Source: Nitrospirota bacterium (lineage in GTDB: Bacteria; Nitrospirota; Nitrospiria; JACQBW01). From it: DNA of 64,000 bases. Of this stretch, positions 17,672 to 45,074 are shown in pieces. Within the stretch, counting starts at the first letter, position 1. Every line of letters begins with the position of its first letter. Below the pieces are notes generated by a model. That model was not told where the DNA came from. It did not search any database and worked only from the letters and a program-made list of their open reading frames with translations. Location of the stretch: contig JACQBW010000011.1 in assembly GCA_016194305.1 (NCBI GenBank), positions 62,001 through 126,000 on the forward strand, read 5' to 3'. Both the position numbers and the translations under genes were made by a program.

Positions 17672-18883
17672 ATGCCTACCTACACCTGCCGTCTCGCCAC
17701 GGCAGATGGAATCATTAAAGAAGAAAAATACGAAGGTGTTAGCGAAGAGACTTTAAAGGAGTCCCTGGAAAAAAAGGGATTCCTTGTTTTTTGGGTTAAA
17801 AAGGAAGCGGGATTTAGCCCCAAAAATATCCAGTTTCTGTCGAACAAGAAAATCTCGTCTCAGGAATTTCTGATTTTTAACTATGAATTGTCCGCTTTGA
17901 TCCGTTCCGGTCTTTCTATCCTGAAAGTATTTGATCTTCTCGAAGGAAGAGCGCTTATTCCCGGCTTTAAGCTGGCCCTCCAAGGCGTTCGAAAGGAGAT
18001 TGCAGGAGGCTCCACCATCTCGGACGCGCTTGCGCATTATCCGCGCTATTTTCCTGAAATCTATATCTCTTCGATCCGGGCTGGAGAAAAAAGCGGAAAT
18101 CTGGTTGAAATTTTAAATCGGTATATTCTCTTTTATAAGAAGATTCTGGCGGTTAGAAAAAAGATTGCGACCGCTTTAACCTACCCTCTTTTCTTAATGG
18201 TAGTTGGCGCGGGGGTCATCCTCTTCCTTCTGACGTATGTTTTGCCGACGTTTTCCGAAATATATTCCGATGCGAGACAAGAGCTCCCGTGGATCACCCA
18301 GGCGCTTATTTCGTTTGTTCATTTTTTAAAAGCCCGGTTCATCTGGATTATTCTCGCAGGAGGAGCATTTTTCTTTATTTCGAAAAAGTGGTTTTCGACG
18401 GAAAAGGGAATGGAATTGAAAGATACACTTATTCTCAATGTTCCTACTCTCGGAGAGATTGTCAAGACGCAGCAGGTGGTTACGATTGGACGTACGCTGG
18501 CGACCATCCTGAGCGGAGGAATAACCCTGGTCACAGGGCTGGAAATGGTCGCGCAGTCGCTCAACAACAGGAACTTTGCGAAAAGAGTTCATTTTTCCAT
18601 CCAGAAAGTCCGTGAAGGATCTACGCTCTCGGCGGCCTTTGGTTCAGCAAACCTGATGCCCAAAATTGCGCTGGAAATGATCGATGTCGGCGAAACGACC
18701 GGATCGCTTGAAGATATGCTAAACCAGATCTCCGATTTTCAGGAAGAGTTGTTAGATCAGAAACTGACTCGAATTACGACCTGGGTTGAGCCGGTTTTAC
18801 TACTCGTCATGGGCGTATTGGTTGCCATCATCCTTGTCGCGATGTATCTTCCCATATTCAATTTGGCGGGGACCCTCAAATGA
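17672..18883 (+). CDS. PilC/GspF-family inner-membrane platform protein (cluster I)
   Basis: A 403-residue polytopic membrane protein of the type IV pilus/type II secretion platform. An N-terminal region (MPTYTCRLATADGIIKEEKY) precedes two GspF domains, about residues 68-190 and 270-392. They carry the recurring motifs YELSALIRSGLSILKVFDLL and GRTLATILSGGITLVTGLEM. Three hydrophobic segments are visible near residues 170-190, 220-240 and 368-390. The platform transmits rotation of the PilB-type ATPase to pilin extraction. It opens a six-gene operon and overlaps the ATPase gene by four bases (ATGA). Confidence 0.9.
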   Translation: MPTYTCRLATADGIIKEEKYEGVSEETLKESLEKKGFLVFWVKKEAGFSPKNIQFLSNKKISSQEFLIFNYELSALIRSGLSILKVFDLLEGRALIPGFKLALQGVRKEIAGGSTISDALAHYPRYFPEIYISSIRAGEKSGNLVEILNRYILFYKKILAVRKKIATALTYPLFLMVVGAGVILFLLTYVLPTFSEIYSDARQELPWITQALISFVHFLKARFIWIILAGGAFFFISKKWFSTEKGMELKDTLILNVPTLGEIVKTQQVVTIGRTLATILSGGITLVTGLEMVAQSLNNRNFAKRVHFSIQKVREGSTLSAAFGSANLMPKIALEMIDVGETTGSLEDMLNQISDFQEELLDQKLTRITTWVEPVLLLVMGVLVAIILVAMYLPIFNLAGTLK

Positions 18884-20607: not shown

Positions 20608-20730
20608 GCGTTTGTTGAAAAGGCTTCATTTGCTTTGTTCTCGTCGCTCGGTAATCCTCACGTACGTTTTATGTGCGCTCCGGTTGCCTCGTTCCTGCGG
20701 CCTCGCAACTAAAGCCTTTTGATCAAGCGC
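20608..20730. repeat. Palindromic dispersed repeat, copy S (123 bp)
   Basis: An imperfect palindrome filling the gap directly after the cluster I ATPase stop. The outer arms are 20608-20626 and 20712-20730, 16 of 19 positions complementary. The core at 20656-20683 begins CCTCACGTACG and matches copies at 56969-57092 and (inverted) 32235-32355. The arms differ between copies while staying self-complementary within each. It looks like a REP- or MITE-like element; no transposase is nearby. Confidence 0.75.
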
Positions 20731-20796
20731 TTTTCCAGGCACGGGATAAATCTATCTAAAATGATTAAACCTGGTTACATTTTAATCAGAAGCTTT

Positions 20797-20825
20797 TTGA
20801 CAAGTTTGAAGAATTGAGTTGTATT
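20797..20825 (+). promoter_or_regulatory. Predicted sigma-70 promoter before the PilM-like gene
   Basis: A perfect TTGACA at 20797-20802 is followed after 17 bases by TGTATT (4/6). The start codon lies only 17 bases beyond, giving a very short leader. It suggests that genes 20842-23445 can be transcribed separately from the upstream pilC-pilB pair. Confidence 0.5.
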
Positions 20826-20841
20826 TAGTGAGGTATAAAAC

Positions 20842-21840
20842 ATGACGCTCTTTTCATCCTTAAAAGCAGGATTGCATATTGGCAAGGATTACCTTTCTTT
20901 TGCTATTTTAAAACAGAAAAGAGGAGGATTCGAGATTCAGGATTTCGAGCTGATCTTTCTATCCAAGAATGCGGTCCGCCATTCGCCAACCGAATCAAAT
21001 ATTTTAAGCAGCCAGGAAATCCGGGATCATCTTCAGAAAGTATTTGCTGACCGGCCGGAAATCAAATCAATCTCTTTGAGTCTTCCCGATCTCAGTTCCC
21101 GTATGGTGCTCATTGAAATCAAGAACGAAATTCCTCCTCTGATTGAATTGAACCAGATGATTAAATGGAATATGGAGCAAAAATTCGTCACGGAAATCGG
21201 AGAATCCCGCTTCTCCCATCAGCTGATCGGCCAGTCGGACAAAAGTTTTAAAAATAAGGCTGAATCGGGAATTTCAAAAAAATACTTCCTTATTCTTGGA
21301 ACCGCCGTTTTAAAGAATATCCTTGCTGAATACGAAGGCCCGCTGCTTTCATTTCAACGGATTCCAAAAGTCATCAATTCTGCATCGCTCAATATCTTTA
21401 ACCTTTATCATGATCTCATCTTCGATCAGTATAAGAGCGAAAACTTCCTTTTTTTATCCGTATTGGACAACTATTTTACATTGATGGTTTTCGAAAAGAA
21501 AATTCTACAATATATTCGGACCGTCGGATTGCGGAGCTCCGAAGACGGTATGGAAGGAAAGATTGATGAGAACAACCAGCTCAAAATCGTCAATGAAATT
21601 GAAACCGCCTTGCAGTATCATTATCGAGACGCAGAGTTAATTTCCGAAGTTCAACTTTATATGACCGGTCTTCGGGAAATTCCGAATTCGGTTTTGGACG
21701 CCGCCGGGCGGCACCATTTAAAAGTCTTATTATTGACGCCGCGGCTCTTTCCCGGGTTGGATAGAAATGAACTGATTAGAAATGGGGATATGTTTCAGCT
21801 CTCTCCGGCCATTGCCGCTGCGGCAGGAGCAATCATTTGA
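20842..21840 (+). CDS. PilM/GspL-like actin-fold protein (cluster I)
   Basis: A 332-residue protein that I place in the PilM/GspL-cytoplasmic superfamily by position and pattern. The N-terminus LKAGLHIGKDYLSFAILKQK resembles the first phosphate strand of PilM (GIDIGxxxIK), and IPPLIELNQMIKWNMEQKF corresponds to the typical PilM segment with a conserved W near residue 110. The sequence is clearly diverged: the nucleotide-binding glycines are poorly kept. In pili PilM binds the cytoplasmic N-terminus of PilN. The next gene begins at a TTG overlapping its stop. Confidence 0.7.
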   Translation: MTLFSSLKAGLHIGKDYLSFAILKQKRGGFEIQDFELIFLSKNAVRHSPTESNILSSQEIRDHLQKVFADRPEIKSISLSLPDLSSRMVLIEIKNEIPPLIELNQMIKWNMEQKFVTEIGESRFSHQLIGQSDKSFKNKAESGISKKYFLILGTAVLKNILAEYEGPLLSFQRIPKVINSASLNIFNLYHDLIFDQYKSENFLFLSVLDNYFTLMVFEKKILQYIRTVGLRSSEDGMEGKIDENNQLKIVNEIETALQYHYRDAELISEVQLYMTGLREIPNSVLDAAGRHHLKVLLLTPRLFPGLDRNELIRNGDMFQLSPAIAAAAGAII

Positions 21841-22376
21841 AGTTTACGACCAATTTTTCAGAATTTCCCAACCGTTCAAAGCAAGTGTCGAAATGGGTTC
21901 TCGCAGTCCTGGCTCTGGTCACGGTCGGCTTCCTCTACTATTCCTATCGGCTATCGGAATGGAACCGGTTTGAGACGAACCACCTTCAGGCCAGCATCGA
22001 TCGTCTACAACTTTTAATTGAAAAAGAAAAGAGTGGAGAAAAAGGGACCTCCGATGCCAAGAAACTCGACCAGAAAGTGGCATTGGTCAATGAAATTATC
22101 ATAAAAAAGTCATTTTCTTGGACAGGGTTTCTAAATAGCCTTGAGAAAGCGACACCGAAAGACATCTCCATTAAGAAAATCGAACCGCATTTTAATGATT
22201 TTTCGGTTAACCTGTCGGGCGAGGCGTTGACTTTGAAAGAACTTACTAATCTGATTCTTTCCCTGGAGCGGAAGCCGCAATTCAGCAATGTCTTTCTATT
22301 AGATCAAAAACAGACGATCAACAACCGGACCGACTTTTTGATTCACCTGAATTATAAAGAAAAAGATAAAATATGA
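21837..22376 (+). CDS. PilN-like inner-membrane protein (cluster I)
   Basis: A 179-residue bitopic protein: a short cytoplasmic N-terminus (MKFTTNFSEFPNRSKQVSKW), one transmembrane helix at about 21-38, a coiled-coil region to about residue 75, then a ferredoxin-like periplasmic domain (KKIEPHFNDFSVNLSGEALT). This is the PilN layout. The TTG start at 21837 overlaps the upstream TGA and is preceded by AGGAG, so translation is probably coupled to the PilM-like gene. Confidence 0.72.
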   Translation: MKFTTNFSEFPNRSKQVSKWVLAVLALVTVGFLYYSYRLSEWNRFETNHLQASIDRLQLLIEKEKSGEKGTSDAKKLDQKVALVNEIIIKKSFSWTGFLNSLEKATPKDISIKKIEPHFNDFSVNLSGEALTLKELTNLILSLERKPQFSNVFLLDQKQTINNRTDFLIHLNYKEKDKI

Positions 22377-22894
22377 ATTTGTTTAATCGTTTTGAAATGT
22401 ATAAGAGAGAAGCCGTTGTCGCAATTATATTGATTGGGATCATATTTTTTTCCTTCTTTTTCTTTTTGCAGGCTTCAAAACAATCTCTTGAAAATAAGGA
22501 AGTACAATGGAAAGAGACGCGGAAACAGATGGATGCTGTTCTGCGGAGAAAAAAGGTGGAACGGGACCTCGACCAATTTGTCAATCTGCTTGAAGATCAG
22601 CAGAATTATGCGGACGTGATTAATCGGCCGATGGTCATCGCCAAAAAATATCATCTGACGGTTCCTTCGGTTATTTATCAGAAAGAGAAAGTGGAACAAG
22701 AATTCCTGCGGGTTTCTTTTGCTTTCTCGGTTATTGGCAAATACGAATCGATTCGGGAATTTATTGCGGATATTGAATCAGCTAAATCCCTCTATGTGAT
22801 TGAAGATATGAATCTTGGTAAATCGAGCAAGGAGGGGAGCCTGCTTGAACTTCAATTGAAAATGATCACGTTGTTAAAAACAAATAAAATATGA
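22373..22894 (+). CDS. PilO-like inner-membrane protein (cluster I)
   Basis: A 173-residue bitopic protein with a transmembrane helix at about residues 16-35, a coiled-coil stretch (SLENKEVQWKETRKQMDAVL), and a C-terminal domain of the PilO type (FAFSVIGKYESIREFIADIE). PilN and PilO heterodimerise in the periplasm and link the cytoplasmic platform to the outer ring. It overlaps both neighbours by four bases (ATGA). The family call rests on layout and order, as individual PilO sequences are poorly conserved. Confidence 0.72.
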   Translation: MNLFNRFEMYKREAVVAIILIGIIFFSFFFFLQASKQSLENKEVQWKETRKQMDAVLRRKKVERDLDQFVNLLEDQQNYADVINRPMVIAKKYHLTVPSVIYQKEKVEQEFLRVSFAFSVIGKYESIREFIADIESAKSLYVIEDMNLGKSSKEGSLLELQLKMITLLKTNKI

Positions 22895-23445
22895 CACAGA
22901 CTCGAAAAACGCTGGCACTCCTGTTTCTCATGGCACTCTGGGTGGCGGTATTTATTTATCAATACAACCATCAGCTGGAGGAGAAACATCTCCCTTTAAA
23001 ATATAAAAAAGGAGATGTTTCTCCTCCAGCGGCTGTTTTCAATTCTACAGACTCCACGGTCCGCCTTGACCTGCTCAGGGCGTCCCCTCAGCCATTGACC
23101 ATCACGAAGAACATATTTGAACCGATTCATATTTATGTTCCCCCTCCGCCCAAAGTGGAGCCTCCTCCTCCCCCACCTCCAGTTTATGTCCCCCCTCCTC
23201 CGACTCCTGAGGAGATTGCCAGGGCACAAGCAACAAAAAGTCTCTCGGAATTTAAATATTTGGGCTATCTCGACAGGGGAAAAAGCAAAGAACAAGGATT
23301 CTTTTCCCGCGGGGGTGAGCTTTTTAATGTCGGCAAGGGCGAGACAATTGTGGGGAGTTTTATCCTGAAAGATCTAAATCCCAATCAAGCTGTCCTAAGA
23401 GATAAAGCGACCGGCGTAGAATCGACGTTGATCCTTTCTCAATAA
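22891..23445 (+). CDS. PilP/GspC-like protein with proline-rich linker (cluster I)
   Basis: A 184-residue protein with an N-terminal transmembrane anchor (about 8-24), a low-complexity proline linker at about 83-108 (PPPPKVEPPPPPPP and continuing), and a C-terminal beta domain (FKYLGYLDRGKSKEQGFFSR, GELFNVGKGETI) like the HR/PilP domain that contacts a secretin in GspC and PilP. No secretin gene is present in cluster I. A perfect 20-bp inverted repeat occupies codons near 28-46. It overlaps the PilO-like gene. Confidence 0.7.
   Translation: MTQTRKTLALLFLMALWVAVFIYQYNHQLEEKHLPLKYKKGDVSPPAAVFNSTDSTVRLDLLRASPQPLTITKNIFEPIHIYVPPPPKVEPPPPPPPVYVPPPPTPEEIARAQATKSLSEFKYLGYLDRGKSKEQGFFSRGGELFNVGKGETIVGSFILKDLNPNQAVLRDKATGVESTLILSQ
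22974..23030. repeat. Perfect 20-bp inverted repeat inside the PilP/GspC-like gene
   Basis: The arm at 22974-22993 is the exact reverse complement of the arm at 23011-23030, with a 17-base A/T-rich loop. It lies wholly inside the coding region between the membrane anchor and the proline linker, so the mRNA would form a very stable hairpin. The reading frame is intact through it. Confidence 0.9.
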
Positions 23446-33595: not shown

Positions 33596-34201
33596 ATGAT
33601 GACAAATTTATATAGCTACTCAGTGAGCAAGGCGAACGAGAGGGGGAGGCTCCATGCGGCTCCGCCGCTGGAGGGGGCGACGCGAACCCCTATTATAGAC
33701 AATCAAAGAGGTTTTACGTTGATCGAGCTTCTCGTCGTGTTGGTCATTATCGGAATCCTAACCGCTATTGCTGTGACGCGTTATCAGGATCTCACCACTG
33801 AAGCCCAAATTGGCGCAACAAAGGGAAACCTGGCAACGATAAAGGGTGGAATTAGTCTCTTGCACGCCCGGTTTTTATTGGCGGGTTACGGAGGAACAGC
33901 ACAGGAATGGCCATCCGTCGCAGAGTTAAATAATAACTTAACCGCGGGAAGAACCGCAGCCTTGAATGGTCTTAAAATCATCGAAGGCCCTTCCACGGCG
34001 ACCTGTGCAAGCTGTATGCCTCCGGATTCTGTGATTTCAAACGCAAGGACGGTGACCGCGGTAACCACCGCGAATGCGGACGCCCGAAGTGTATCGGCTG
34101 GGGCCGGGATCGGCTGGGACTATGATCCCGTATCCGGCCAGATTTATGTTGCGGCCACCACGCCAAGCGATTCGCTGGGCACTCCGGCCAACTTGTGGTA
34201 A
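33596..34201 (+). CDS. Type IV prepilin with a 39-residue repeat-encoded leader
   Basis: A 201-residue prepilin. The peptidase cleavage site is G39/F40 in DNQRGFTLIELLVVLVIIGI, with Glu at +5 of the mature protein. The ATG at 33596 is strongly supported by AAAGGAGGT seven bases upstream, yet the leader is far longer than the usual 5-15 residues. Its residues 9-34 are encoded by a 79-bp dispersed hairpin repeat (33620-33698). The mature domain (about 162 residues) is GspG-like in its first part (KGNLATIKGGISLLHARFLL) with a Cys pair CASC. It is the first of three pilin genes after pilC. Confidence 0.85.
   Translation: MMTNLYSYSVSKANERGRLHAAPPLEGATRTPIIDNQRGFTLIELLVVLVIIGILTAIAVTRYQDLTTEAQIGATKGNLATIKGGISLLHARFLLAGYGGTAQEWPSVAELNNNLTAGRTAALNGLKIIEGPSTATCASCMPPDSVISNARTVTAVTTANADARSVSAGAGIGWDYDPVSGQIYVAATTPSDSLGTPANLW
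33620..33698 (+). repeat. 79-bp hairpin repeat, copy B (inside the prepilin leader)
   Basis: It aligns without gaps to 50365-50443 with about 12 mismatches. Central hairpin: CTCCA-T-GCGGC, loop TCC, GCCGC-TGGAG. The other copy has CTTCA-T-CCGGC, loop TCT, GCCGG-TGAAG, so both stem changes are compensated. It is translated in frame as SVSKANERGRLHAAPPLEGA and continuing TRTPII. Confidence 0.85.
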
Positions 34202-34270
34202 TTCAAATATCGGTTATACTTTATTGAAAGAGGGGGTGAGGGTCAGGAAGTGATCGGGTAGTGTCAAGTA

Positions 34271-34325
34271 GTAGGGGCGATTTTTGAATCGCCCTGGATC
34301 AGGGCGGTTGTTGAACCGTCCCTAC
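34271..34325. repeat. 55-bp cruciform-type repeat upstream of the major pilin
   Basis: An outer stem, GTAGGGGCG against CGTCCCTAC (8/9), encloses two small hairpins, GGCGATT/AATCGCC and GGCGGTT/AACCGTC. It lies 43 bases before the pilin gene at 34369. It resembles a short dispersed intergenic element; no second copy is in the window. Confidence 0.65.
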
Positions 34326-34368
34326 ACGCTAAAATTATATAACCATAACTACAAAAGGAGAATTATAG

Positions 34369-34818
34369 ATGAAGGTATTAAAAAATCAGAAAGGTTTTAC
34401 ATTGATTGAGCTAATCATTGTAATCGTCGTATTAGGTGTGTTGGCGGCTGTTGCCATTCCTCAGTATGTCAATATGGTCGATGACGCCAGAGCGGCAGCA
34501 AATACAGGCTACGTTGGAGGATTAAGAAGTGCTATGGCCATCAGCACGGCAAATTATACCCTTAAGAGTGCTTCCTGTGTCCCCAATATTATGACGGCCG
34601 CAGGTGCGATTACTTCAACAAATGTGGAGGCCTGTGTCAGTGGATCGCGTCCAGCTTCATTAACTGCAAACGGGGCTTCTCCCGGACAATGGGTTGGATT
34701 TGCTCCCAATCTTACTTCTGGAGGTGCAGTTGGAACCGTAACTTGGAATGTCGTTCTGGCAACAGCGGCTCTTCCTGCAACAATAACCTGCACCGGATCG
34801 GCCACTTATCAGTGTTAA
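34369..34818 (+). CDS. Type IV pilin (major pilin candidate, copy 1)
   Basis: A 149-residue class-I-type prepilin. The leader is MKVLKNQKG and cleavage is before FTLIELIIVIVVLGVLAAVA, with Glu5 conserved. The mature protein has four cysteines (ASCVPNIM, EACVSGSR, ITCTGS and a final C) that can form two disulfides, including a C-terminal loop. It resembles MSHA-type pilins. AAAAGGAG precedes the start. A strong intrinsic terminator follows directly, which often marks a highly expressed major pilin. A tandem copy lies 87 bases downstream. Confidence 0.92.
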   Translation: MKVLKNQKGFTLIELIIVIVVLGVLAAVAIPQYVNMVDDARAAANTGYVGGLRSAMAISTANYTLKSASCVPNIMTAAGAITSTNVEACVSGSRPASLTANGASPGQWVGFAPNLTSGGAVGTVTWNVVLATAALPATITCTGSATYQC

Positions 34819-34821
34819 TAG

Positions 34822-34862
34822 AAAATAGACCGCAGGATGTTTTCCTGCGGTCTATTTTATTT
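34822..34862 (+). terminator. Intrinsic terminator between the two tandem pilins
   Basis: A perfect 16-bp stem (34822-34837 with 34843-34858), loop TGTTT, whose 3' arm ends in a T-rich tract (TCTATTTTATTTT). It should stop most transcription after the first pilin, allowing limited readthrough into the second. Confidence 0.9.
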
Positions 34863-34905
34863 TCGGAACTTAATTAATGAGAGTTTACTCACTCTGGAGC
34901 GATCG

Positions 34906-35358
34906 ATGGGCGTGTTAAGGAATCAAAAAGGCTTTACATTGATTGAGTTAATCATTGTCATCGTTGTATTAGGTGTGCTGGCGGCTGTTGCCATTCCTCA
35001 GTATGTCAATATGGTCGACGATGCCAGGGCGGCAGCAAATACAGGCTACATCGGAGGATTAAGGAGTACGATGGCCATCAGTACGGCAAATTATACTCTT
35101 AAGAGTGCTTCGTGTGTTCCCAATATTATGACCAGTGGAGGCGCGATCACGGCGACCAATGTCGAAGGATGTGTCAGTGGAAGCCGCCCCGCTTCATTAA
35201 CTTCAAATGGTGCGACTTCCCCTGGACAATGGGTTGGATTTGCTCCCAATCTTACTTCTGGAGGTGCAGTTGGAACCGTAACGTGGAATGTTGTCCTGGC
35301 AACAGCGACTCTTCCTGCAACAATAACCTGCACCGGATCGGGCACCTATAGATGCTAA
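34906..35358 (+). CDS. Type IV pilin (tandem copy 2)
   Basis: A 150-residue prepilin nearly identical to the preceding one; leader MGVLRNQKG, then FTLIELIIVIVVLGVLAAVA. ATG 34906 has GGAG six bases upstream; an earlier start at 34837 lies in the terminator hairpin and is unlikely. The four cysteines are kept. A 59-base stretch near the 3' end (35224-35282 against 34684-34742) is identical even at silent sites, while the 5' half has several silent differences, which suggests local gene conversion. Confidence 0.9.
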   Translation: MGVLRNQKGFTLIELIIVIVVLGVLAAVAIPQYVNMVDDARAAANTGYIGGLRSTMAISTANYTLKSASCVPNIMTSGGAITATNVEGCVSGSRPASLTSNGATSPGQWVGFAPNLTSGGAVGTVTWNVVLATATLPATITCTGSGTYRC

Positions 35359-35411: not shown

Positions 35412-37520
35412 CTAATTTGAAATTTTGTTTATTAGATTTTCGATCTTGGTTCGAAGTTCCGGATCGTGAATTATTGTCAAAGCTTCCTTTAGAAGAGGAA
35501 GCGATTCTCTCGTTGCTTTATCGGCAGCCCCTTTTTCAAATTCAGCAACCGCAGTTTCAAAATTTCCGTTCTGTAAGAAAAGACTCCCAATATTAAAATG
35601 AATGGCGGTATTTCGAGGATTTCCCTCATAAGCCAATATATATTCTTCCAGGGCCTTTTTTGGCAATCCCTGAAACTGGTAAGTTCGTCCCAAATTTTGA
35701 TGTAGTTGGGATGGGTTCGGGTCGACCATTAAGGCCTCCTTAAAATAAATCTCAGCGTTTTTATAATCCCCAAGTTTAAGACAAAGAACCCCGAGGTGAT
35801 TGAGGGGTTCAAGTGCGTCGGGATTAATCTGATTTGCTTCCAAATAGGCCTGTCGTGCCTCATCCGGATTGCTTGAGCTTTCATAGAGCTCTCCAAGATA
35901 CAGGTACCCTTGTACCAGTTTTGGAAACTGATTCAAGAGTTCTTTGGTTTCCTTTATTCCTATTTCTGGGCCTAGCAATTGACCGTGTAAATTCGCAAGG
36001 TTATAACGTGCAATGAAAAGATTTTGGTTAAGCGATATGGCGGTCATGAATTCACTTTCGGCTTTTCTGATTTCTCCCTTTTTTAAAAGTACTGACCCAT
36101 AGTCATTGTGGGCCAGGACTTCGTTGGGATTGAGCTCAAGAGTTCTCACATATTCTTTTTCGGCCAGGTCAAGGTCGTTTTCGTCTTCATAGGCCTTTCC
36201 GAGATTAATATGAGCGCGAAAGGAATCCGGAGATCTCTTGACTGCTGAAGCCCAAAGGGCAATCTGGCTAAACCAGTCTTTGTTCCTTTCTATGGTAAAA
36301 ACCGATTCGAATAAGAGAGATATCAGAAAAAGGACCATTCCCATTCCTTTCAATATTGGATAGGGCCATCTCCTGAAGAGGTAAGAAATTCCGGATACTG
36401 ACGAGATAAATATACCGATTGACGGGAGATAAAGCCGGTGCTCGAATACCAAATCGATCGGAATAAAGGTCGATTCCACGAGAAGATTGATAAAAAACCA
36501 GAGGATTCCAAAAGATATAAACGGGAATTTCTTTGCGTTTTTTATGGACCAACTAATAGAGGCGACGATGAGAATAAGTGAGAAAAAAGTGGATAGGGGT
36601 TGAAATAGATTTCTTGAAATCGGAACAAAATAGTCTATCGAAAGGCGATCAGGAATAGGATAGGCTAATAAAGAGAAATAATAGACCAGGACCCTCCATT
36701 CGGTCATTACTCTTTCCCAGATTGTAAATTCCTGGGAAGCTGAGCGATGACTAAAGAAATCATTAATTGCCGGATGAAAATAGATATAGGCGATAATCAA
36801 GACTGAAACAAAAAAATAAAATGGAAAAGATTTCGAAAATGTATCTTTGAATTTATTCCATCTGAACTTCGAAATGAAATAATAATCTATCAAAAGGCAG
36901 GTGATCGGAAAAAACACCGTATTTTCTTTTGAAAGAAGCGCGAGACCACCACAAACAAATGTGAGAAAAATCCAGTAGAAATTCCTTGGGGTGATGGAAT
37001 GTCTTGCTTTTATATAAGCAATCAATCCGGTGAGATAAAAAAGGCAAGCAAGGAGTGTCATCCTTTGAACGATATAATTTACAGACTGAGTTTGAATAGG
37101 GGAAGCGGCCCATAATAGAGAAATGGCTGATGCCAAATAGCGAGATTGAGAGATCATCAATTCTGATTCAGCGAGCTTAATGAGAAGATTTAAGAAAGTG
37201 AAAAGGACGACAGTGTTCAGAAGGTGCAAAAAAATATTCACGAGATGATAACTTTTAACATCAAGCTTTCCAAAATAATAGTTCAGCCCAAAGGTAATGT
37301 TGGAAATAGGACGGTGAGAAATGAGACTTCTGTAGAATGTGGAAAAAGATAGGGGTTGCTGCCAATGAAGAGATCTGTTTTCAACGATGTTTGGAATGTC
37401 GTCAAAAATGAAGGGACCTTTGAGGGTATTTGCATAAAGAATGGCAACGAGGAGTGTTGAGAAAAGAAAGAAAATAATGGAAGGGCGAATATTAGAAATG
37501 GAGGTGAGTTTGTTTAGCAT
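35412..37520 (-). CDS. TMTC-like multi-pass membrane protein with TPR repeats
   Basis: A 702-residue protein. The N-terminal 390 residues hold about ten transmembrane segments with an early FIFDDIPNIVEN motif, the layout of GT-C/TMTC-type O-mannosyltransferase-like proteins (DUF1736 group). From about residue 420, five or six TPR repeats follow (RAHINLGKAYEDENDLDLAE, VLAHNDYGSVLLKKGEIRKA and so on). It lies antisense inside the pilus locus between major and minor pilins, so pilin O-glycosylation is an attractive but unproven role. Its DNA is more AT-rich than the flanking genes. Confidence 0.8.
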   Translation of the reverse strand: MLNKLTSISNIRPSIIFFLFSTLLVAILYANTLKGPFIFDDIPNIVENRSLHWQQPLSFSTFYRSLISHRPISNITFGLNYYFGKLDVKSYHLVNIFLHLLNTVVLFTFLNLLIKLAESELMISQSRYLASAISLLWAASPIQTQSVNYIVQRMTLLACLFYLTGLIAYIKARHSITPRNFYWIFLTFVCGGLALLSKENTVFFPITCLLIDYYFISKFRWNKFKDTFSKSFPFYFFVSVLIIAYIYFHPAINDFFSHRSASQEFTIWERVMTEWRVLVYYFSLLAYPIPDRLSIDYFVPISRNLFQPLSTFFSLILIVASISWSIKNAKKFPFISFGILWFFINLLVESTFIPIDLVFEHRLYLPSIGIFISSVSGISYLFRRWPYPILKGMGMVLFLISLLFESVFTIERNKDWFSQIALWASAVKRSPDSFRAHINLGKAYEDENDLDLAEKEYVRTLELNPNEVLAHNDYGSVLLKKGEIRKAESEFMTAISLNQNLFIARYNLANLHGQLLGPEIGIKETKELLNQFPKLVQGYLYLGELYESSSNPDEARQAYLEANQINPDALEPLNHLGVLCLKLGDYKNAEIYFKEALMVDPNPSQLHQNLGRTYQFQGLPKKALEEYILAYEGNPRNTAIHFNIGSLFLQNGNFETAVAEFEKGAADKATRESLPLLKEALTIIHDPELRTKIENLINKISN

Positions 37521-37636
37521 GGATACCGGTGAATTTAAACGAAATAAAGGGGCCTTGCAACCCCAATTGAGAGGCTTGACGATAAACAGGGGAGAGGTAC
37601 ACTTAATTAAAGAACTTAATATTTAACAGGAAAGTG

Positions 37637-38194
37637 ATGATTAGAAGAAAAAACGGATTTACGCTAATAGAACTTGTCATTGTCATGGTGATTGTGGCGA
37701 TTCTTGGAATGATGGTCAATACGTTAACTGGTAATAATGCGTCTACCAAGGCCTCTGGCACCGTTCGGAAGATTCAATCCGATATCATTCTTGCTCAGGA
37801 ATCGGCGATGACTCAACGAGTTCATTACCGGATCCAGTTTACCTCCCCTTCGGGATACAATATGAAATGGTGCAATTATCAGGTGACAACCTGTTCAAAC
37901 CCGGCAAACTGGACAAACGCCATAGATCCTTCTACAAATACCACTCCCTTTAATGTGACCCTCAACAGCGGAAATTATTCGGGGGTTACTTTGGCTCCTC
38001 CGACATTGAATTGCTATTATCTGGAATTTAATTCTGCAGGCGTCCCCCTTGAAGATACTACCGGGGGGGCGTGTACGACTGCCCCCAATCCCTCGGTCCC
38101 CGTAGCAACCTTGCTATCCAGATTGGTAACCGTTAATCCCGGCGGGTTAACAGTCACAGTTCAATCGGGAACCGGGAAAACATCTATTCCCTGA
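37637..38194 (+). CDS. Minor prepilin, FimT/GspH-like
   Basis: A prepilin of 185 residues: leader MIRRKNG, then FTLIELVIVMVIVAILGMMV with Glu5. The N-terminal mature part has the GspH/FimT pattern (VRKIQSDIILAQESAMTQRV followed by HYRIQF). The C-terminal domain contains a CNYQVTTC cysteine pair and more cysteines. ATG 37637 follows CAGGAAAGTG; a GTG one codon earlier is also possible. It opens the minor pilin run 37637-40546, divergent from the TMTC-like gene. Confidence 0.85.
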   Translation: MIRRKNGFTLIELVIVMVIVAILGMMVNTLTGNNASTKASGTVRKIQSDIILAQESAMTQRVHYRIQFTSPSGYNMKWCNYQVTTCSNPANWTNAIDPSTNTTPFNVTLNSGNYSGVTLAPPTLNCYYLEFNSAGVPLEDTTGGACTTAPNPSVPVATLLSRLVTVNPGGLTVTVQSGTGKTSIP

Positions 38195-38261: not shown

Positions 38262-38675
38262 ATGACCCCTAATCATCGTGGATTCACTCTAATTGAAGTG
38301 ATTATTAGCATTGTGTTACTGGCGATTTTATCTTCCGGTCTTATGGCAATGTTTACCACATTTTCAAAAAGCAATGGGGATCCCTCAGTCAATATACTGT
38401 CATCCGAATTGGCGCAGGAGAGGATGGAGCAAATTATTGCCGATAAAGAGAATCCTGCTAGGGGATTTCCATATCTTACGAATGCCAATTATCCCGTTGA
38501 AAATCCGGTAACGGGATTTCCCAATTTTAGCAGAAGTGTCAGCATTATTTATGTTGATCCGGCTGGGAATCTATCGGTTGCGGCGGCTGGGACAACCAAC
38601 TACAAGAATATCACAGTCACCGTAACCAGTTTAACCGGAAGTTTGACTACTTCTTCCCTGGTAGGAAGTTTTTAA
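38262..38675 (+). CDS. Minor prepilin, PilV/GspI-like
   Basis: A 137-residue prepilin: MTPNHRG, then FTLIEVIISIVLLAILSSGL with Glu5. SSELAQERMEQIIADKENPA is the typical PilV/GspI segment after the N-terminal helix. The short beta domain has no cysteines. It ends two bases before the next prepilin, indicating one operon. Minor pilins of this type prime assembly of the fibre at its tip. Confidence 0.85.
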   Translation: MTPNHRGFTLIEVIISIVLLAILSSGLMAMFTTFSKSNGDPSVNILSSELAQERMEQIIADKENPARGFPYLTNANYPVENPVTGFPNFSRSVSIIYVDPAGNLSVAAAGTTNYKNITVTVTSLTGSLTTSSLVGSF

Positions 38676-38677
38676 AG

Positions 38678-39187
38678 ATGATGATTCCCAGGGCCGACTT
38701 AAAAGTTCGATTCGATCAAAGAGGATTTACGATGGTTGAACTTGTAATCGTCATCGTTTTGGTTGGCGTTATTGCGATGACAGCGAGCATTTTAATTGGA
38801 CAGGCGGCAAAAACCTACCAAAGCAGTGATAATTATTCCGCCATTTCAAACCAGGGAAGACTCGCGCTGGAAATGATGGCACGGGAAATCAGACTCTTGA
38901 GAAGCCCGGCCGATATCACTTCGTCCTGTGCGGCGGCAACTACGGCTTTGAATTTTACCGATACCAACGGAACCCCGGTAACTTATAGCTTCGCCGGTTC
39001 GACGCTCTCAGCCGGCGGCGTTCCCCTTGCGGACAATCTGACCGCCTTTACCATTACCTACTATGATAAAAGCAACAGTCCGACGAATATCTGTGGTTCT
39101 GCCTGGAGCATTGCGGTATCGCTCACAGCAGCCCAGGGGAGCGATTCTCTGACGATGAGAACGAGAATCCATCCGAGGAGCTTTTAA
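38678..39187 (+). CDS. Minor prepilin, PilW/GspJ-like
   Basis: A 169-residue prepilin with leader MMIPRADLKVRFDQRG (16 residues), then FTMVELVIVIVLVGVIAMTA, Glu5 present. NQGRLALEMMAREIRLLRSP is the hallmark PilW/GspJ segment. Two cysteines lie in the beta domain (TSSCAAAT and NICGSA). It is followed three bases later by the PilX-like gene. Confidence 0.87.
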   Translation: MMIPRADLKVRFDQRGFTMVELVIVIVLVGVIAMTASILIGQAAKTYQSSDNYSAISNQGRLALEMMAREIRLLRSPADITSSCAAATTALNFTDTNGTPVTYSFAGSTLSAGGVPLADNLTAFTITYYDKSNSPTNICGSAWSIAVSLTAAQGSDSLTMRTRIHPRSF

Positions 39188-39190
39188 ACG

Positions 39191-40546
39191 ATGCAAAATT
39201 TTAATCAAAAAGGGATTGCATTGATGGCGATCATTTTTCTCCTCGTTGTGATTTCCTTCACCGGAATTATTTTTATTTCACTGTCATCAAGCAGTGCGAC
39301 TCAGGCGGTAAACGAAGTCAGATCGAATCAGGCGTTTTATATCGCTGAAGCGGGTATGGAAAGAACGCGGGGATATCTGGCAGGAAAAGATGCATCTTGC
39401 CCGGTTGGAGGCTGTACCTGCGCTTCGATTAACGGAAATGCGCTCTTTACCAATAAATCAATCGGTTCAGGACAATTTACTGTAACGGCGACAACAATTG
39501 GAGGACAATGCACGCTCACTTCGACCGGGGGTGTTCCGACGATCGCTTCCGGAACTACTCAACGGGTTGTGACCTATACCGCCATTACGACCATTCAAGA
39601 TGCCTGGGCAGTAGGGTACAACGTGACCGGAGTTAATCGTCCCTTTATGGCCCATTGGGATGGAAGCGCCTGGACCAATCTGACGGCATCGGCTCCGAAT
39701 ATTGGTGGGAACAATTTAATGGAAGTATCGATGATTTCCAGTTCCGAGGGTTGGGCTATTTCAAATGCGGGAGATTTTATTAAATATAATGGTTCAAATT
39801 GGGCGCTCTCTGGCGTCTTCAATTCTACGGCAACGCTCAATTCTATTTACATGAACGCAACGAACGATGGTTGGGCTGTTGGATCAAGCGGCGAAATAGA
39901 TCGATTGGACGCGGGAGGAGTCTGGTACAAATATCCTTATGTGGCTCAAGGCTCCAATAATGCCGCGATAACTCTACTCGGAGTCTACTGTATGAATTCT
40001 TCTTACTGTTGGGCGGTAGGCAATCGAACCTCAAGTGGCTCAGGCCAATCTAATATCTATTTTTGGAACGGTACAAACTGGAGTCCTTCGTCTACAGCAG
40101 GCATTAATGGGGCAAATTTTCGCTACGTTTCGTGTGTGGATACGACCCATTGCTGGGCGGTGGGCAGCAGCGGAGGAGAAATTATCTTTTGGAACGGCGC
40201 CAGTTGGGCCTTTCAGGATAACGGAAATTCTTCATTATGGGGAGTGGACTGTGTTGATACTACTCGTTGTTGGGCAGTGGGGAGAACCCTGAATGGCGGT
40301 AATCAGGTGAATTCTTATACTAGCCCAACTTGGGTTCTTCAAACTCCTCCGACGGGACAAAACCTGACTTTTGTGAGTTGTGTTTCACTAACCGACTGCT
40401 GGGCTTCTGGGGCTGCCGGCGTGCTCATTCATTGGAATGGTATTTTGCCTTGGACTTTAACGACCGTAGGGACGGTTCAGATTAATAGTCTTTCTCAGTT
40501 TCGAAGTGGAAACTCAACCACCTCATGGAAGGAAGTCATACAGTAA
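39191..40546 (+). CDS. PilX-like minor pilin fused to a seven-repeat WAVG propeller
   Basis: A 451-residue protein. Residues 1-55 are PilX-like: KGIALMAIIFLLVVISFTGI and NQAFYIAEAGMERTRGYL, a transmembrane helix and the typical A-x-Y-x-AEAGxE motif; the leader MQNFNQKG lacks Glu5, as in PilX. Residues about 135-451 contain seven repeats with the core (G/C)WAVG or close variants, usually followed by a WNG or WDG motif, likely a seven-bladed beta-propeller. Four blades carry a Cys-x6-Cys pair (SCVDTTHCWAVG). No PilY1 gene is present, so this may be the tip adhesin. A terminator follows. Confidence 0.82.
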   Translation: MQNFNQKGIALMAIIFLLVVISFTGIIFISLSSSSATQAVNEVRSNQAFYIAEAGMERTRGYLAGKDASCPVGGCTCASINGNALFTNKSIGSGQFTVTATTIGGQCTLTSTGGVPTIASGTTQRVVTYTAITTIQDAWAVGYNVTGVNRPFMAHWDGSAWTNLTASAPNIGGNNLMEVSMISSSEGWAISNAGDFIKYNGSNWALSGVFNSTATLNSIYMNATNDGWAVGSSGEIDRLDAGGVWYKYPYVAQGSNNAAITLLGVYCMNSSYCWAVGNRTSSGSGQSNIYFWNGTNWSPSSTAGINGANFRYVSCVDTTHCWAVGSSGGEIIFWNGASWAFQDNGNSSLWGVDCVDTTRCWAVGRTLNGGNQVNSYTSPTWVLQTPPTGQNLTFVSCVSLTDCWASGAAGVLIHWNGILPWTLTTVGTVQINSLSQFRSGNSTTSWKEVIQ

Positions 40547-40676: not shown

Positions 40677-40913
40677 ATGAGAACATCCGAAATTTTGGAA
40701 AAAATACAAATTCCCCGCCATAAACTTTATTACCTCGAACAGAAGGGCTATATCTCGCCTAAAAGAATTCCGATGGGCGACCTGGAGTCACGCGATTATT
40801 CCAGGGAAGACTTTTTAAAAATTCAGGCAATTTGGAAATTTTTGCAAAAAGGTTTTAAACATCGAACGGCTTATGAGCAGGCAATGAAAGAGCTGATCGG
40901 AGAAAAAAAGTGA
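40677..40913 (+). CDS. Mini MerR-family DNA-binding protein
   Basis: A 78-residue protein with only the MerR winged-helix domain: RTSEILEKIQIPRHKLYYLE is the helix-turn-helix, followed by QKGYISPKRIPMGDLESRDY (wing). It has no effector or dimerisation domain. It is the first gene of the pilMNOPQ operon, and the pilM start (GTG) overlaps its stop, so it is probably a dedicated regulator of this operon or of the pilins upstream. An excisionase-like origin is the alternative but no integrase is near. Confidence 0.8.
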   Translation: MRTSEILEKIQIPRHKLYYLEQKGYISPKRIPMGDLESRDYSREDFLKIQAIWKFLQKGFKHRTAYEQAMKELIGEKK

Positions 40914-41938
40914 ATCTCTCGCGTCCATTAATCGGCATGGATATTGGCGAATCAAGCATTAAACTTTCGGTCATATCAAAGCAAGGCTCAAGACTCTCTC
41001 TCGACTATGCGGATAGGCTTCCGATTCAGACTTCAAAAGGAGACCTTCTCTCAGAGTCCGAAAAAATGATCGGTCTGAAGAATCTTTTTAGCAAAAATTC
41101 TTTTAAGAAAAATCCGGTTGTCATGAATTATACCGGGAATGCCCCGGTGATTCGTTATCTGAAATTACCGGAGATGCCGGAGAATGAATTAGCCGAGGCG
41201 ATCCAATGGGAAGCCAAAAAGGTGATTTCCGAACCACTCGAATCCAAAATTATCGATTATGCGATCCTCCGGAAGGTCTCTGATGGTGGAAAGAATACAC
41301 TTGAAATTATTCTTGTTGCAGTTGATAAGGGCGATGTTTCGGAAGGATTGGGCATTATTCGAAGAGCCGGCGTCTATCCCGCCTTGATGGATGTCAATCC
41401 CCTAGCTCTATTAAAAGTTGTGGCGCTCAATCATTCCAGCGAGATCGGCCAGGATCTGATCTTTATCGATATTGGTTCTTCGAAAATGGAAGTGAATATC
41501 TCAAGGGATGGTGTCCTCCGGTTTACACGACAGATTGGGAGGGGCGGAAACAACCTTTCTCATCTCATTATGGAAAAGAGGTCACTCTCTTTTGAAGATG
41601 CCGAAAAAATCAAGAAAGAGGAAGGGTTTTCCGCGTCTGAACTCGATGAGACAATCAAGGAAGAAGTGGACCGGATGGTATTAGAAGTACAGCGGTCAAT
41701 TGATTTCTACCGGACGCAATTTCGAGATATTTTAATAAAAAAGATTATTTTGATGGGAGGGACCCCTTTAATGCCTGGCTTCAGAGACTATTTTGAGACA
41801 CAGTTTGATTTTCCTGTTGTTCTGGAGAATCCCTTTTCGTTACTGACCGGTCCCACCCATTTATTGAAAGAGCTGAATCCGGTCAGCTCGATCTGGACGG
41901 CGTCCATCGGACTCGCATTGAGAGGGAAGGTTCATTGA
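40910..41938 (+). CDS. pilM: Type IV pilus assembly protein PilM (cluster II)
   Basis: A 342-residue actin-fold ATPase. PLIGMDIGESSIKLSVISKQ is phosphate-1, KLPEMPENELAEAIQWEAKK the family's LP motif, DLIFIDIGSSKMEVNISRDG phosphate-2 and KIILMGGTPLMPGFRDYFE the adenosine motif. It is cytoplasmic and binds the N-terminus of PilN. Here that partner begins MKREINLITNEF, the INL motif expected to be bound. It starts at GTG 40910, overlapping the mini-MerR stop. Confidence 0.93.
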   Translation: MNLSRPLIGMDIGESSIKLSVISKQGSRLSLDYADRLPIQTSKGDLLSESEKMIGLKNLFSKNSFKKNPVVMNYTGNAPVIRYLKLPEMPENELAEAIQWEAKKVISEPLESKIIDYAILRKVSDGGKNTLEIILVAVDKGDVSEGLGIIRRAGVYPALMDVNPLALLKVVALNHSSEIGQDLIFIDIGSSKMEVNISRDGVLRFTRQIGRGGNNLSHLIMEKRSLSFEDAEKIKKEEGFSASELDETIKEEVDRMVLEVQRSIDFYRTQFRDILIKKIILMGGTPLMPGFRDYFETQFDFPVVLENPFSLLTGPTHLLKELNPVSSIWTASIGLALRGKVH

Positions 41939-42002
41939 CACTATGGCCTTGTAAGGGTGACTTTCTGGTCTGCCAGACATGGGATTGATTGCAGGAATAG
42001 GA

Positions 42003-42554
42003 ATGAAACGAGAAATTAATTTAATCACAAATGAATTTGCTTTTGATCCGTTAGGAAAAATCAAACCGATCATTTTAGCTGTTTGGCTGGGAAGTCTGGT
42101 GTTGCTTCTGGGAGGTCTGATTTTGGCGAAAGAATTCGAGATTAGGAACACCCGGTTGGAATCGGCCCGTATTTCCGAACAGCTCTCGCGAACATCGCTG
42201 GAAGAGAACGACTTGGAGCAATTCATACAGAAGAACGGTCAATCGGACACCGGCGTCTTATTTCAAAATGCGATTCCGTGGGTCGATATTCTTTCAACGA
42301 TCGGAACCATTGTGCCGGAAGGAACCTGGTTAAAAACCTTCGATGGCGGCATCAGGCAGGAGGGGAAAGATCAACCTCCCGTGAAACAGATGAAATTGGC
42401 CGGGTTTGCCTATTCACATGCCCCCATTACGCTTTTATTATCCCGACTGGAAAGACAATCTCTATTTTCAGATATCCATCTGATCTATACCCAGAAGGGG
42501 GAAACGCTTGACGATCGATATGTCCATTTTGAAATTACCGGGAGAATGAATTGA
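42003..42554 (+). CDS. pilN: Type IV pilus assembly protein PilN (cluster II)
   Basis: A 183-residue bitopic protein. The N-terminus MKREINLITN carries the PilM-binding INL motif. A transmembrane helix follows at about 21-42, then a coiled coil and a ferredoxin-like domain (LSTIGTIVPEGTWLKTFDGG, QMKLAGFAYSHAPITLLLSR). I use ATG 42003, which puts the INL motif at the N-terminus; GGAATAGGA lies just upstream. The next gene starts at a TTG overlapping this stop. Confidence 0.9.
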   Translation: MKREINLITNEFAFDPLGKIKPIILAVWLGSLVLLLGGLILAKEFEIRNTRLESARISEQLSRTSLEENDLEQFIQKNGQSDTGVLFQNAIPWVDILSTIGTIVPEGTWLKTFDGGIRQEGKDQPPVKQMKLAGFAYSHAPITLLLSRLERQSLFSDIHLIYTQKGETLDDRYVHFEITGRMN

Positions 42555-43153
42555 CCACACTGGCTGAACTGACGCAAAGAATCGGATTGAAACCGGGTTC
42601 ATGGGTGAATAAAGGGATCAAAGATCCGGTTATCCAGGGCGTGGTCCTGACCATCATTTTCTTAGCCATTGGCGGAACCCTCATGAGCCAAAAATCAAAT
42701 GAGCTCATCCATCTTAAGAAAGATGTGACAGCGAACAGGGAACTCTTAACTCAGAAAGAGAAACATCTCTTTTTTCTCCGGGATGAAACAAAAAATATCA
42801 ACGCCCGGCTTCAGAAGAAATCGCTTGCCGGCGGTCAATTAACAGCAAATGAGAGGAAGATGTCATCTGTCTTGGAAAAAACGGCCCTGTTGGCTGCAGG
42901 CAGAAAAGTCGAGATGGTCTCATTCCGGCCTGAATCGGTGATCGAAGGGGAAAAAGATAACCTGTTGACGGTAAAAATCAAAGTGAAAACCGATTTTAAT
43001 GAATTAAAGGAATATATCTCGCGATTAAAACATTTTCCAAGCCCCATTAAGATCGATTCGGTCAAAATTGATACTTTGGAAAATGAAACGCCGATGGTCT
43101 ACGGAGATCTGGTCGTCATGACACGAATCATGAAGGAAAAAAATGAAAAATAA
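42551..43153 (+). CDS. pilO: Type IV pilus assembly protein PilO (cluster II)
   Basis: A 200-residue bitopic protein with a transmembrane helix at about 33-50 (VVLTIIFLAIGGTLM), a coiled coil (about 55-85) and a PilO-type domain (VKIKVKTDFNELKEYISRLK). The TTG start at 42551 overlaps the pilN stop and has GGGAGAA upstream. The 3' end overlaps pilP by 11 bases. Confidence 0.87.
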   Translation: MTTLAELTQRIGLKPGSWVNKGIKDPVIQGVVLTIIFLAIGGTLMSQKSNELIHLKKDVTANRELLTQKEKHLFFLRDETKNINARLQKKSLAGGQLTANERKMSSVLEKTALLAAGRKVEMVSFRPESVIEGEKDNLLTVKIKVKTDFNELKEYISRLKHFPSPIKIDSVKIDTLENETPMVYGDLVVMTRIMKEKNEK

Positions 43154-43586
43154 TCTCTCCCTATTATTAACTGGTTTTTTTCTCATTGCCATGATCTCCC
43201 TGGCAATTGGCCAGTCCGATTCTGGAAAATCGCAAACCGAGATCGACCAGGCTGAATCAGACAGCGTCACGGCTGACGAAGCGGATCATGAAGATGAGAA
43301 TACCGTTTCCGGGCCTCATGACCCGTTTCATCTTCCCAGGAAAAAGAATCTGAATCATCAAATTCCGGGCGGGGTGCGGGTCGGGCAATGGCATTTAACG
43401 GGGATTATTGTCGGGGGTTCCGGTGAGCGTCTTGCGATTGTGAACGATCGTCTTGTTTCCGAAGGGGATAAAGTGACCGGAGGTCAGATCGATCGGATCT
43501 ATCCAGATGTCGTCGTAATTAAGGGGCCATTTGGAACCCGGGAGCTTAAAATGCTCTCCTTTTCATCCGAGAGTCAAGGGGATTAA
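43143..43586 (+). CDS. pilP: Type IV pilus assembly protein PilP (cluster II)
   Basis: A 147-residue protein with an N-terminal signal or anchor (MKNNLSLLLTGFFLIAMISL), an acidic disordered stretch (about 27-60) and the PilP/HR-type beta domain (VGQWHLTGIIVGGSGERLAI, RIYPDVVVIKGPFGTRELKM). No lipobox cysteine is visible, unlike many PilP lipoproteins, so it may stay anchored by the uncleaved segment. It links PilN/O to the secretin. Confidence 0.85.
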   Translation: MKNNLSLLLTGFFLIAMISLAIGQSDSGKSQTEIDQAESDSVTADEADHEDENTVSGPHDPFHLPRKKNLNHQIPGGVRVGQWHLTGIIVGGSGERLAIVNDRLVSEGDKVTGGQIDRIYPDVVVIKGPFGTRELKMLSFSSESQGD

Positions 43587-43625
43587 TCGGGAAGCTATTA
43601 ATGAACTTGTAAGATAGGGAATCAT

Positions 43626-45074
43626 ATGATTAAGCCAACACGGATCTTCAGATCTATTTTTTTAGCGGTTTTGTTCCTAACTGCCCCAAAAGGATGGTGC
43701 CAGGGACAGATCGTCCCGCTCTTTCCAACGGATTCCAATGTATCCGGGGGGCCGAAGTTTTCTCTGGAGTTTAGAGATGCGGATATAAAAGATGTCCTTC
43801 GCGCCATCGGCCAGGAAAATCACGTCAATATCATTATCCGGGAAGAAGTCAAAGGGAAAGTCACGCTCAGTTTCAAAAATGTGACCCTGGATGAGGCGTT
43901 CTCTGCGATTTTGAAAAATCAGAACCTCTGGGCGAGCAAGACCGATTCGATTGTAACCGTCTCCCGGCCCTCTACGTCGGAAGGAGAAGAAGATTCGATC
44001 ACCCGGATGATACCGGTCAATTACGCAAGTGCAAAGGAACTGCAGGATTCTGTCAGGGGATTAATGAGCAAAAAAGGGACCGTTTCTGTCGATGGCCGTT
44101 CCAATACATTGATTATTAAAGATAGCCCCGAGGGCGTAGACCGAATTGCGAACCTGGTCAAATCACTTGACATGAAGACGCCCCAGGTCATGATTGAAGC
44201 CCGAGTAGTCGAAGCGAGCACCAATTTTACGCGCGAACTCGGTATTCAGTGGGGAGGCGAATATGTGAACGGTAATTATCTGGTCAATGGAGGTGCCTTC
44301 AAGACCAATTCCACGGACACTTTTCTGACTCCTTTAACCGGAGGAATTGGGGCAAGCGGTGGACCCTTTGCAGTCAATTTACCCGCAACAGTCGGTCCCG
44401 GGTCCGGAGGATCGATTGGATTATCGTATATCGCAAGCAATCTTCTTCTGGATTTACAGCTTTCTGCCATGCAAGATACGGGAAAAGGGAAGATTCTATC
44501 CAATCCGAAGATCTTAACGCTCGATAATAAAGAGGCCCGGATTTCAAGCGGGACTGAAATTCTCATTCCAACGGCAACCCTTGTGACAAACGGAACCTCG
44601 ACAGGTGGGACGGCGACAGGATCATCGGCGACAAGTGGGGTGACCACGATTCAGGCCAAACTGGAGCTTGTCGTTACCCCCCACATTACCCCTGATCACC
44701 AGATTCTGATGCATATCAAAACCGAAAAAAAGGAGCCAGATTACAACCGTCAGATTCAGAATATTCCCCCTTTAGCGACTCGTACGGCTGAAACCGACCT
44801 GATGGTCAAGAACGGAGCGACGGTTGCGATCGGTGGTATTTATACCAAGAATGAGTCATTAAATGAAAACGGAATACCCTGGCTGGAAAATATTCCGATT
44901 CTCGGATGGTTGTTTAAAAAGCAGAACAAGGGGGATCAGCAAGCTGAGCTCATTATCTTCATTACTCCGACTGAATTTCAAGACGGCGGTCCGTCGGAAA
45001 AAATTGCCTATCATTTGATCACCCCCGAATCCCTGAATGAAGATCAAAAATCGGTGAAGCCTGGCAAAGAGTAA
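43626..45074 (+). CDS. pilQ: Type IV pilus secretin PilQ (short form)
   Basis: A 482-residue outer-membrane secretin. Signal peptide about 1-27. The STN/N0 domain contains FSLEFRDADIKDVLRAIGQE (about 43-110), then one N1-type domain (VNYASAKELQDSVRGLMSKK) and the secretin pore domain with VMIEARVVEASTNFTRELGI and, near the end, VAIGGIYTKNESLNENGIPW. It lacks AMIN peptidoglycan-binding domains, so it is much shorter than proteobacterial PilQ (usually over 600 residues). It ends the pilMNOPQ operon. Confidence 0.92.
   Translation: MIKPTRIFRSIFLAVLFLTAPKGWCQGQIVPLFPTDSNVSGGPKFSLEFRDADIKDVLRAIGQENHVNIIIREEVKGKVTLSFKNVTLDEAFSAILKNQNLWASKTDSIVTVSRPSTSEGEEDSITRMIPVNYASAKELQDSVRGLMSKKGTVSVDGRSNTLIIKDSPEGVDRIANLVKSLDMKTPQVMIEARVVEASTNFTRELGIQWGGEYVNGNYLVNGGAFKTNSTDTFLTPLTGGIGASGGPFAVNLPATVGPGSGGSIGLSYIASNLLLDLQLSAMQDTGKGKILSNPKILTLDNKEARISSGTEILIPTATLVTNGTSTGGTATGSSATSGVTTIQAKLELVVTPHITPDHQILMHIKTEKKEPDYNRQIQNIPPLATRTAETDLMVKNGATVAIGGIYTKNESLNENGIPWLENIPILGWLFKKQNKGDQQAELIIFITPTEFQDGGPSEKIAYHLITPESLNEDQKSVKPGKE

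What the first reader, a model, noticed from the sequence alone, without database searches (positions are those of the whole stretch)
39191..40546. PilX-like minor pilin fused to a seven-repeat propeller: candidate tip adhesin replacing PilY1
The first 55 residues are PilX-like; the last about 315 contain seven WAVG-type repeats, four with Cys-x6-Cys pairs. In known type IV pili, PilX works with the separate large propeller protein PilY1 at the tip. No pilY1 is visible in this otherwise complete locus. A single polypeptide combining a pilin helix with a propeller would place a ligand-binding domain at the pilus tip without a separate adhesin.
Basis: partly seen in the sequence, partly recalled or inferred. 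Interest (0 to 1): 0.7.

Follow-up and report, generated by a model that had tools for sequence, protein, structure and literature searches.

The report
PilX tip pilin carrying seven-bladed propeller
A groundwater-type Nitrospirota bacterium, and several relatives, make a pilus-tip protein in which the tip pilin PilX and a seven-bladed propeller are one chain instead of two partners; it is a new variant of a known design, and the separate PilY1 adhesin that was thought missing is in fact present elsewhere in the genome.

Summary
ORF 39191-40546 (451 aa) has a PilX_N helix, a pilin domain and seven WAVG blades. AlphaFold predicts a propeller, and Foldseek's best match is the seven-bladed Ycf48. 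The same fusion sits in the same pil locus in related genomes, mostly with seven blades. The claim that it replaces PilY1 fails for the genome. A pilY1 fragment ends contig C9 and a canonical FimU-PilV-PilW-PilX operon ends contig C16; synteny with a relative puts them next to each other. In another relative both minor-pilin sets lie in one pil locus. So this organism has two sets, one with PilY1 and one with the PilX-propeller. Within its own set the fusion probably does stand in for a PilX plus tip-protein pair. All fused PilX proteins (17/17) end in a W-x-E/Q/G tail. PilX proteins followed by a separate secreted tip protein or PilY1 lack it, and the tail (or a degenerate YREDF-type form) is then on the partner. 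The C-terminus of PilY1 is already modelled as a strand that completes PilX, so the fusion seems to supply that strand itself. New variant of a known kind (modular tip pilin); ligand unknown.

The parts
39191..40546 (+). PilX::propeller minor pilin, 451 aa (the finding)
39191..39214 (+). Prepilin leader MQNFNQKG (residues 1-8); mature +5 residue is Ala, not Glu, as in PilX and GspK (cleavage site inferred)
   Evidence: sequence; PilX/GspK lack Glu5 according to PMC7541494
39215..39601 (+). Mature PilX pilin module (to about residue 137): long helix 6-63, then strands 89-129; relatives with a split gene stop at this point (..RVVxKTVQR)
39599..40501 (+). Seven-bladed WAVG beta-propeller (about residues 137-437), four blades with C-x5-C pairs
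40505..40543 (+). C-terminal tail (residues 439-451, ending SWKEVIQ) with the conserved W-x-E motif; proposed strand completing the PilX sheet in cis
   Evidence: position in the fold inferred, pLDDT about 31 here
37634..38194 (+). FimU/GspH-like minor pilin of the same set
38262..38675 (+). PilV-like minor pilin of the same set
38678..39187 (+). PilW-like minor pilin, 3 bases upstream of pilX::propeller
40910..45074 (+). pilM-pilN-pilO-pilP-pilQ; this PilM is the only strong PilM and this PilQ the only pil-type secretin found in the genome
30513..33595 (+). pilB and pilC of the same machine
33596..35358 (+). Pilin genes (201, 149 and 173 aa) of the same locus

Best explanation
The gene encodes a tip minor pilin. 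Its N-terminal PilX module is cut by the prepilin peptidase and assembles, with the GspH/FimU-, PilV- and PilW-like pilins upstream, into the priming cap of the type IV pilus built by the window's PilB-PilC-PilMNOPQ machine. The seven-bladed propeller is carried on that cap and is exposed at the pilus tip as a ligand-binding or adhesive head. The last residues (SWKEVIQ) probably return to the pilin sheet and complete it in cis. In the ordinary arrangement this strand comes in trans from the C-terminus of PilY1 or another secreted tip protein. The protein therefore merges PilX with its tip partner within one minor-pilin set. It does not replace PilY1 in the organism, which keeps a second canonical FimU-PilV-PilW-PilX-PilY1 set, giving two alternative pilus tips. 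Shown: the fusion, the predicted propeller, conservation, PilY1 elsewhere, and the tail pattern. Inferred: tip position, strand completion in cis, ligand binding, and use of both sets by one machine.
For: Predicted structure: long helix, pilin strands, then repeated blades (pLDDT 71, pTM 0.64). Foldseek best matches are Ycf48 propellers, E 6.5e-12. Same gene order PilV-PilW-PilX::propeller-PilM in G001, G002, G004 and G029. Blade number is 7 in own, G002 and L071, 7 (plus one negative-score stub) in G029, and about 14-15 in G004. Relatives with a split gene end PilX exactly where this chain runs into the propeller, and the next gene is a secreted-looking 570-676 aa protein whose end carries the tail or a degenerate form. 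The W-x-E/Q/G tail is in all 17 fused PilX, in none of the 6 split PilX and in none of the 7 PilY1-paired PilX, but in 6 of 7 of those PilY1 and in all 6 PilX of second sets without PilY1. A W-x-E-type tail is in 33 of 36 PilX_N relatives against 6 of 147 other pilins. Published models have the PilY1 C-terminus forming a beta-strand with PilX (PMC11046646; PMC13190605). PilY1 plus a second set.
Against: The tail has pLDDT about 31, so the model does not show it in the pilin sheet. No ligand is known. G001 has only four blades, which may be assembly collapse or real variation. The tail is degenerate in 5 of 6 split partners (YREDF/TREDF, no W) and in G029 PilY1. Two PilY1-paired PilX (G029, G016a) were identified by position only. 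Tip location rests on analogy.
Confidence: 0.65

Rival explanations
1. The PilX-propeller is the organism's only tip propeller and has replaced PilY1 altogether.
For: No pilY1 in the window's pil locus. PF05567 finds nothing in own, G001 or G002, and the own PilY1 fragment finds nothing in G001 or G002, so it could be true of those relatives.
Against: Own genome holds a PilY1 fragment at a contig end next to a second minor-pilin set by synteny. G004 has both in one locus.
Confidence: 0.05
2. The window machine is a secretion-type (GspK-like) filament and the propeller is a substrate-binding head for export rather than an adhesin.
For: PilX and GspK share the proposed tip position and lack Glu5 (PMC7541494). 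No pilT lies in the window locus.
Against: The genome has a separate complete-looking T2SS on C16. PilMNOPQ in the window is pil-type and is the only one found. Two PilT-like ATPases occur elsewhere.
Confidence: 0.12
3. The propeller is only structural: it fills the place of PilY1 so that the pilus can be primed and pass the secretin, without binding any ligand.
For: PilY1 and minor pilins are needed for priming in M. xanthus (PMC7541494). Other modules occupy the same slot in relatives.
Against: The varied modules in the same slot (propeller and unrelated modules) suggest display of different heads rather than one structural role.
Confidence: 0.15

Closest known systems
Modular pilins, e.g. 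Streptococcus sanguinis PilB (vWA) and PilC (lectin-like)
   Same: A functional module on a pilin module, proposed to sit at the pilus tip; over 1,200 examples and 264 architectures are known (PMC8179133).
   Different: Those were surveyed by the IPR012902 motif; here the carrier is PilX_N type, the module is a WAVG propeller, and a conserved tail follows the module.
PilX-PilY1 tip complex of type IVa pili (M. xanthus, Neisseria)
   Same: PilX-type pilin plus seven-bladed propeller at the tip; the PilY1 C-terminus is modelled as a strand completing PilX (PMC11046646, PMC13190605).
   Different: One polypeptide; the propeller has no PF05567 match and its best fold match is Ycf48, not PilY1.
ComZ of Thermus thermophilus
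   Different: ComZ carries a beta-solenoid and binds DNA; here a propeller with unknown ligand, and insertion before the last strand is inferred only.
Ycf48 photosystem II assembly factor
   Same: Closest solved fold of the propeller.
   Different: No Ycf48-type Pfam match, no pilin part, unrelated function.

Membership tests
PilX (type IVa tip minor pilin) | PilX_N domain PF14341 | tested here: met
   28.1 bits, over cut-off; 22.9 bits, just under cut-off,
PilX (type IVa tip minor pilin) | Fourth gene after FimU/PilV/PilW-type pilins | tested here: met
PilX (type IVa tip minor pilin) | Lacks Glu5 in the mature protein | tested here: met
   sequence MQNFNQKG|IALMA; criterion from PMC7541494; cleavage site inferred
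Modular pilin | N-terminal pilin module plus an extra module not specific to type IV pili | tested here: met
Modular pilin | Module exposed at the pilus tip with a direct role in binding | not testable with these tools
   needs experiment
PilY1 | C-terminal PilY1 propeller PF05567 | tested here: not met
   no match up to E 1
[quoted passage not shown]
   pilin helix present
PilY1 | C-terminal strand that completes PilX | tested here: inconclusive
   tail motif shared with PilY1, but the tail is not confidently placed in the model
Ycf48 | Ycf48/PSII BNR sequence family | tested here: not met
   fold match only; no such Pfam hit up to E 1

The most novel reading that the evidence does not exclude
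Type IV pilus tips follow a cis/trans rule. The strand that completes PilX is donated either in trans by a secreted tip protein (PilY1 or another) or in cis by a module fused to PilX. Lineages switch between the two, swapping heads on the same slot, and this bacterium carries both kinds at once as alternative tips.
Probability: 0.5. Interest if true: 0.65.

Novelty: new variant of a known kind. Interest (0 to 1): 0.5.

Why it matters
It shows natural single-chain versions of the PilX-tip protein pair next to split versions in related genomes. This gives independent sequence evidence for strand completion of PilX, which so far rests mainly on AlphaFold models in the papers read here. It also offers compact proteins for testing how pilus tips are primed and how their adhesive heads are exchanged. 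A 2026 preprint on strand complementation in tip complexes (Ellison et al., cited in PMC13190605) is not held and may already describe part of this.

Tried and rejected
Absence of PilY1 by PF05567 alone was rejected after a search with a relative's PilY1 found the fragment. The structure of the four-blade G001 protein from a single sequence was poor (pLDDT 38) and not used. No plasmid relatives and no sequence match among solved structures. Promoter and terminator scans gave no more than chance. GC content of the propeller part (0.479) is like its neighbours, so there is no sign of a recent foreign insert. The idea that fused and split forms carry the same module was tested between the split partner in G020 and one Manganitrophus fusion and not supported. 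No paper on WAVG propellers was found.

Full report
What is there. The ORF at 39191-40546 encodes 451 aa. Residues 7-57 match PilX_N (over the cut-off). AlphaFold on a four-sequence alignment gives helix 6-63, pilin strands 89-129, then a regular series of blades (mean pLDDT 71, pTM 0.64). Foldseek puts the seven-bladed Ycf48 first, E 6.5e-12. The propeller reading is therefore supported, with moderate confidence because the alignment is shallow.

Conservation. Of 58 relatives searched, several carry the same fusion between a PilW-like pilin and PilM: G001, G002 (same family), G004 and G029, with a damaged copy in G016 and a probable one in G008. Another lies in a MAG labelled Gammaproteobacteria (L071); its label was not checked. 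Identifiable relatives include Nitrospirota MAGs and Candidatus Manganitrophus, so the window is very probably from Nitrospirota (inference). A blade HMM counts 7 in own, G002 and L071, 7 plus a negative-score stub in G029, 15 hits (about two sevens) in G004 and 4 in G001. Near-repetition of seven in diverged sequences supports a closed ring; the four in G001 may be assembly collapse.

PilY1. The PF05567 search found none in this genome, and no control genome rang, so it was repeated over relatives, where 33 of 58 rang. A search with G004's PilY1 then found a 331-aa fragment filling the end of contig C9. Contig C16 ends inside PilX of a FimU-PilV-PilW-PilX set that follows an NtrC-like gene. 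In G002 the order is NtrC-FimU-PilV-PilW-PilX-PhoH-YbeY-FtsY, and in own C9 PilY1 is followed by two genes, then PhoH-YbeY-FtsY (PhoH, YbeY and FtsY named from the sequences, not by a search). So the two contig ends almost certainly join into a canonical operon. In G004 contigs C30 and C96 overlap by 45 identical residues, giving pilB-FimU-PilV-PilW-PilX-PilY1-..-pilC-pilins-GspH-PilV-PilW-PilX::propeller-pilM-Q in one locus. The own genome has only one strong PilM and one pil-type PilQ, both in the window, though several PilB/PilC pairs, including a pilB-pilT-pilC group on C19. This favours, but does not prove, that both minor-pilin sets serve the same envelope channel, as three sets serve one machine in M. 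xanthus (PMC7541494).

The tail. PilX_N relatives with large modules end in W-x-E-like tails: 33 of 36, against 6 of 147 other pilins and a shuffle mean of 2.6. In six set-1 loci PilX is short, ends in RVVxKTVQR or close variants with no tail, and is followed by a separate secreted-looking protein of 570-676 aa (two of these compared, 41% identical over 558 columns) ending WQEQFR, YREDFR, YREEFR or TREDFP. Alignment shows that the split PilX stops exactly where the present protein runs on into the propeller. In PilY1 sets, PilX has no tail and 6 of 7 PilY1 end in a W-tail; in six PilX of second sets without PilY1 the tail is on PilX. The rows are related, so these counts are not independent. 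The 17 fused rows include two fragments, and two PilY1-paired PilX were identified by position only.

Meaning. In M. xanthus the last residues of PilY1 are modelled as a strand completing the PilX sheet (PMC11046646), also in Neisseria (PMC13190605). The simplest reading is that the tail is that strand, given in trans by PilY1 or another secreted head and in cis by fused PilX. ComZ, with a solenoid inserted before the last pilin strand (PMC6561018), is a structural precedent. The present model does not place the tail with confidence.

Verdict. The fusion and propeller are real and conserved. Replacement of PilY1 in the organism is refuted, while a stand-in role within its own minor-pilin set is probable. 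It belongs to the modular pilins (PMC8179133) as a new variant. The ligand is unknown.

Noticed in passing
40677-40913 (+): A 78-aa ORF resembling a small MerR-type regulator (MRTSEILEKIQIPRHKLYYLEQKGYIS..) lies between pilX::propeller and pilM, overlapping the pilM start; similar ORFs sit in front of pilM in G020, G022, G011 and G036.
   Followed up: no
34369-34818 and 34837-35358 (+): Two nearly identical pilin genes in tandem (149 and 173 aa), possibly duplicate major pilins.
   Followed up: no
35412-37520 (-): A 702-aa membrane protein with TPR-like repeats on the opposite strand inside the pil locus, possibly a glycosyltransferase acting on pilins (by eye only).
   Followed up: no
about 17672-23445 (+): A second PilC/PilB/PilM/PilN/PilO-like gene group upstream in the same window, also present in G001 and G002; its PilM-like protein does not match PF11104.
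   Followed up: partly
G002 locus L063:9724-13419: PilW of the second set in G002 is 1231 aa with an fn3-like region, in a genome where no PilY1 was found.
   Followed up: partly
G000:C21, locus L127:7154-9499: A 781-aa secretin with an N-terminal TPR-like region and a lone pseudopilin beside it, away from any pilus locus.
   Followed up: no
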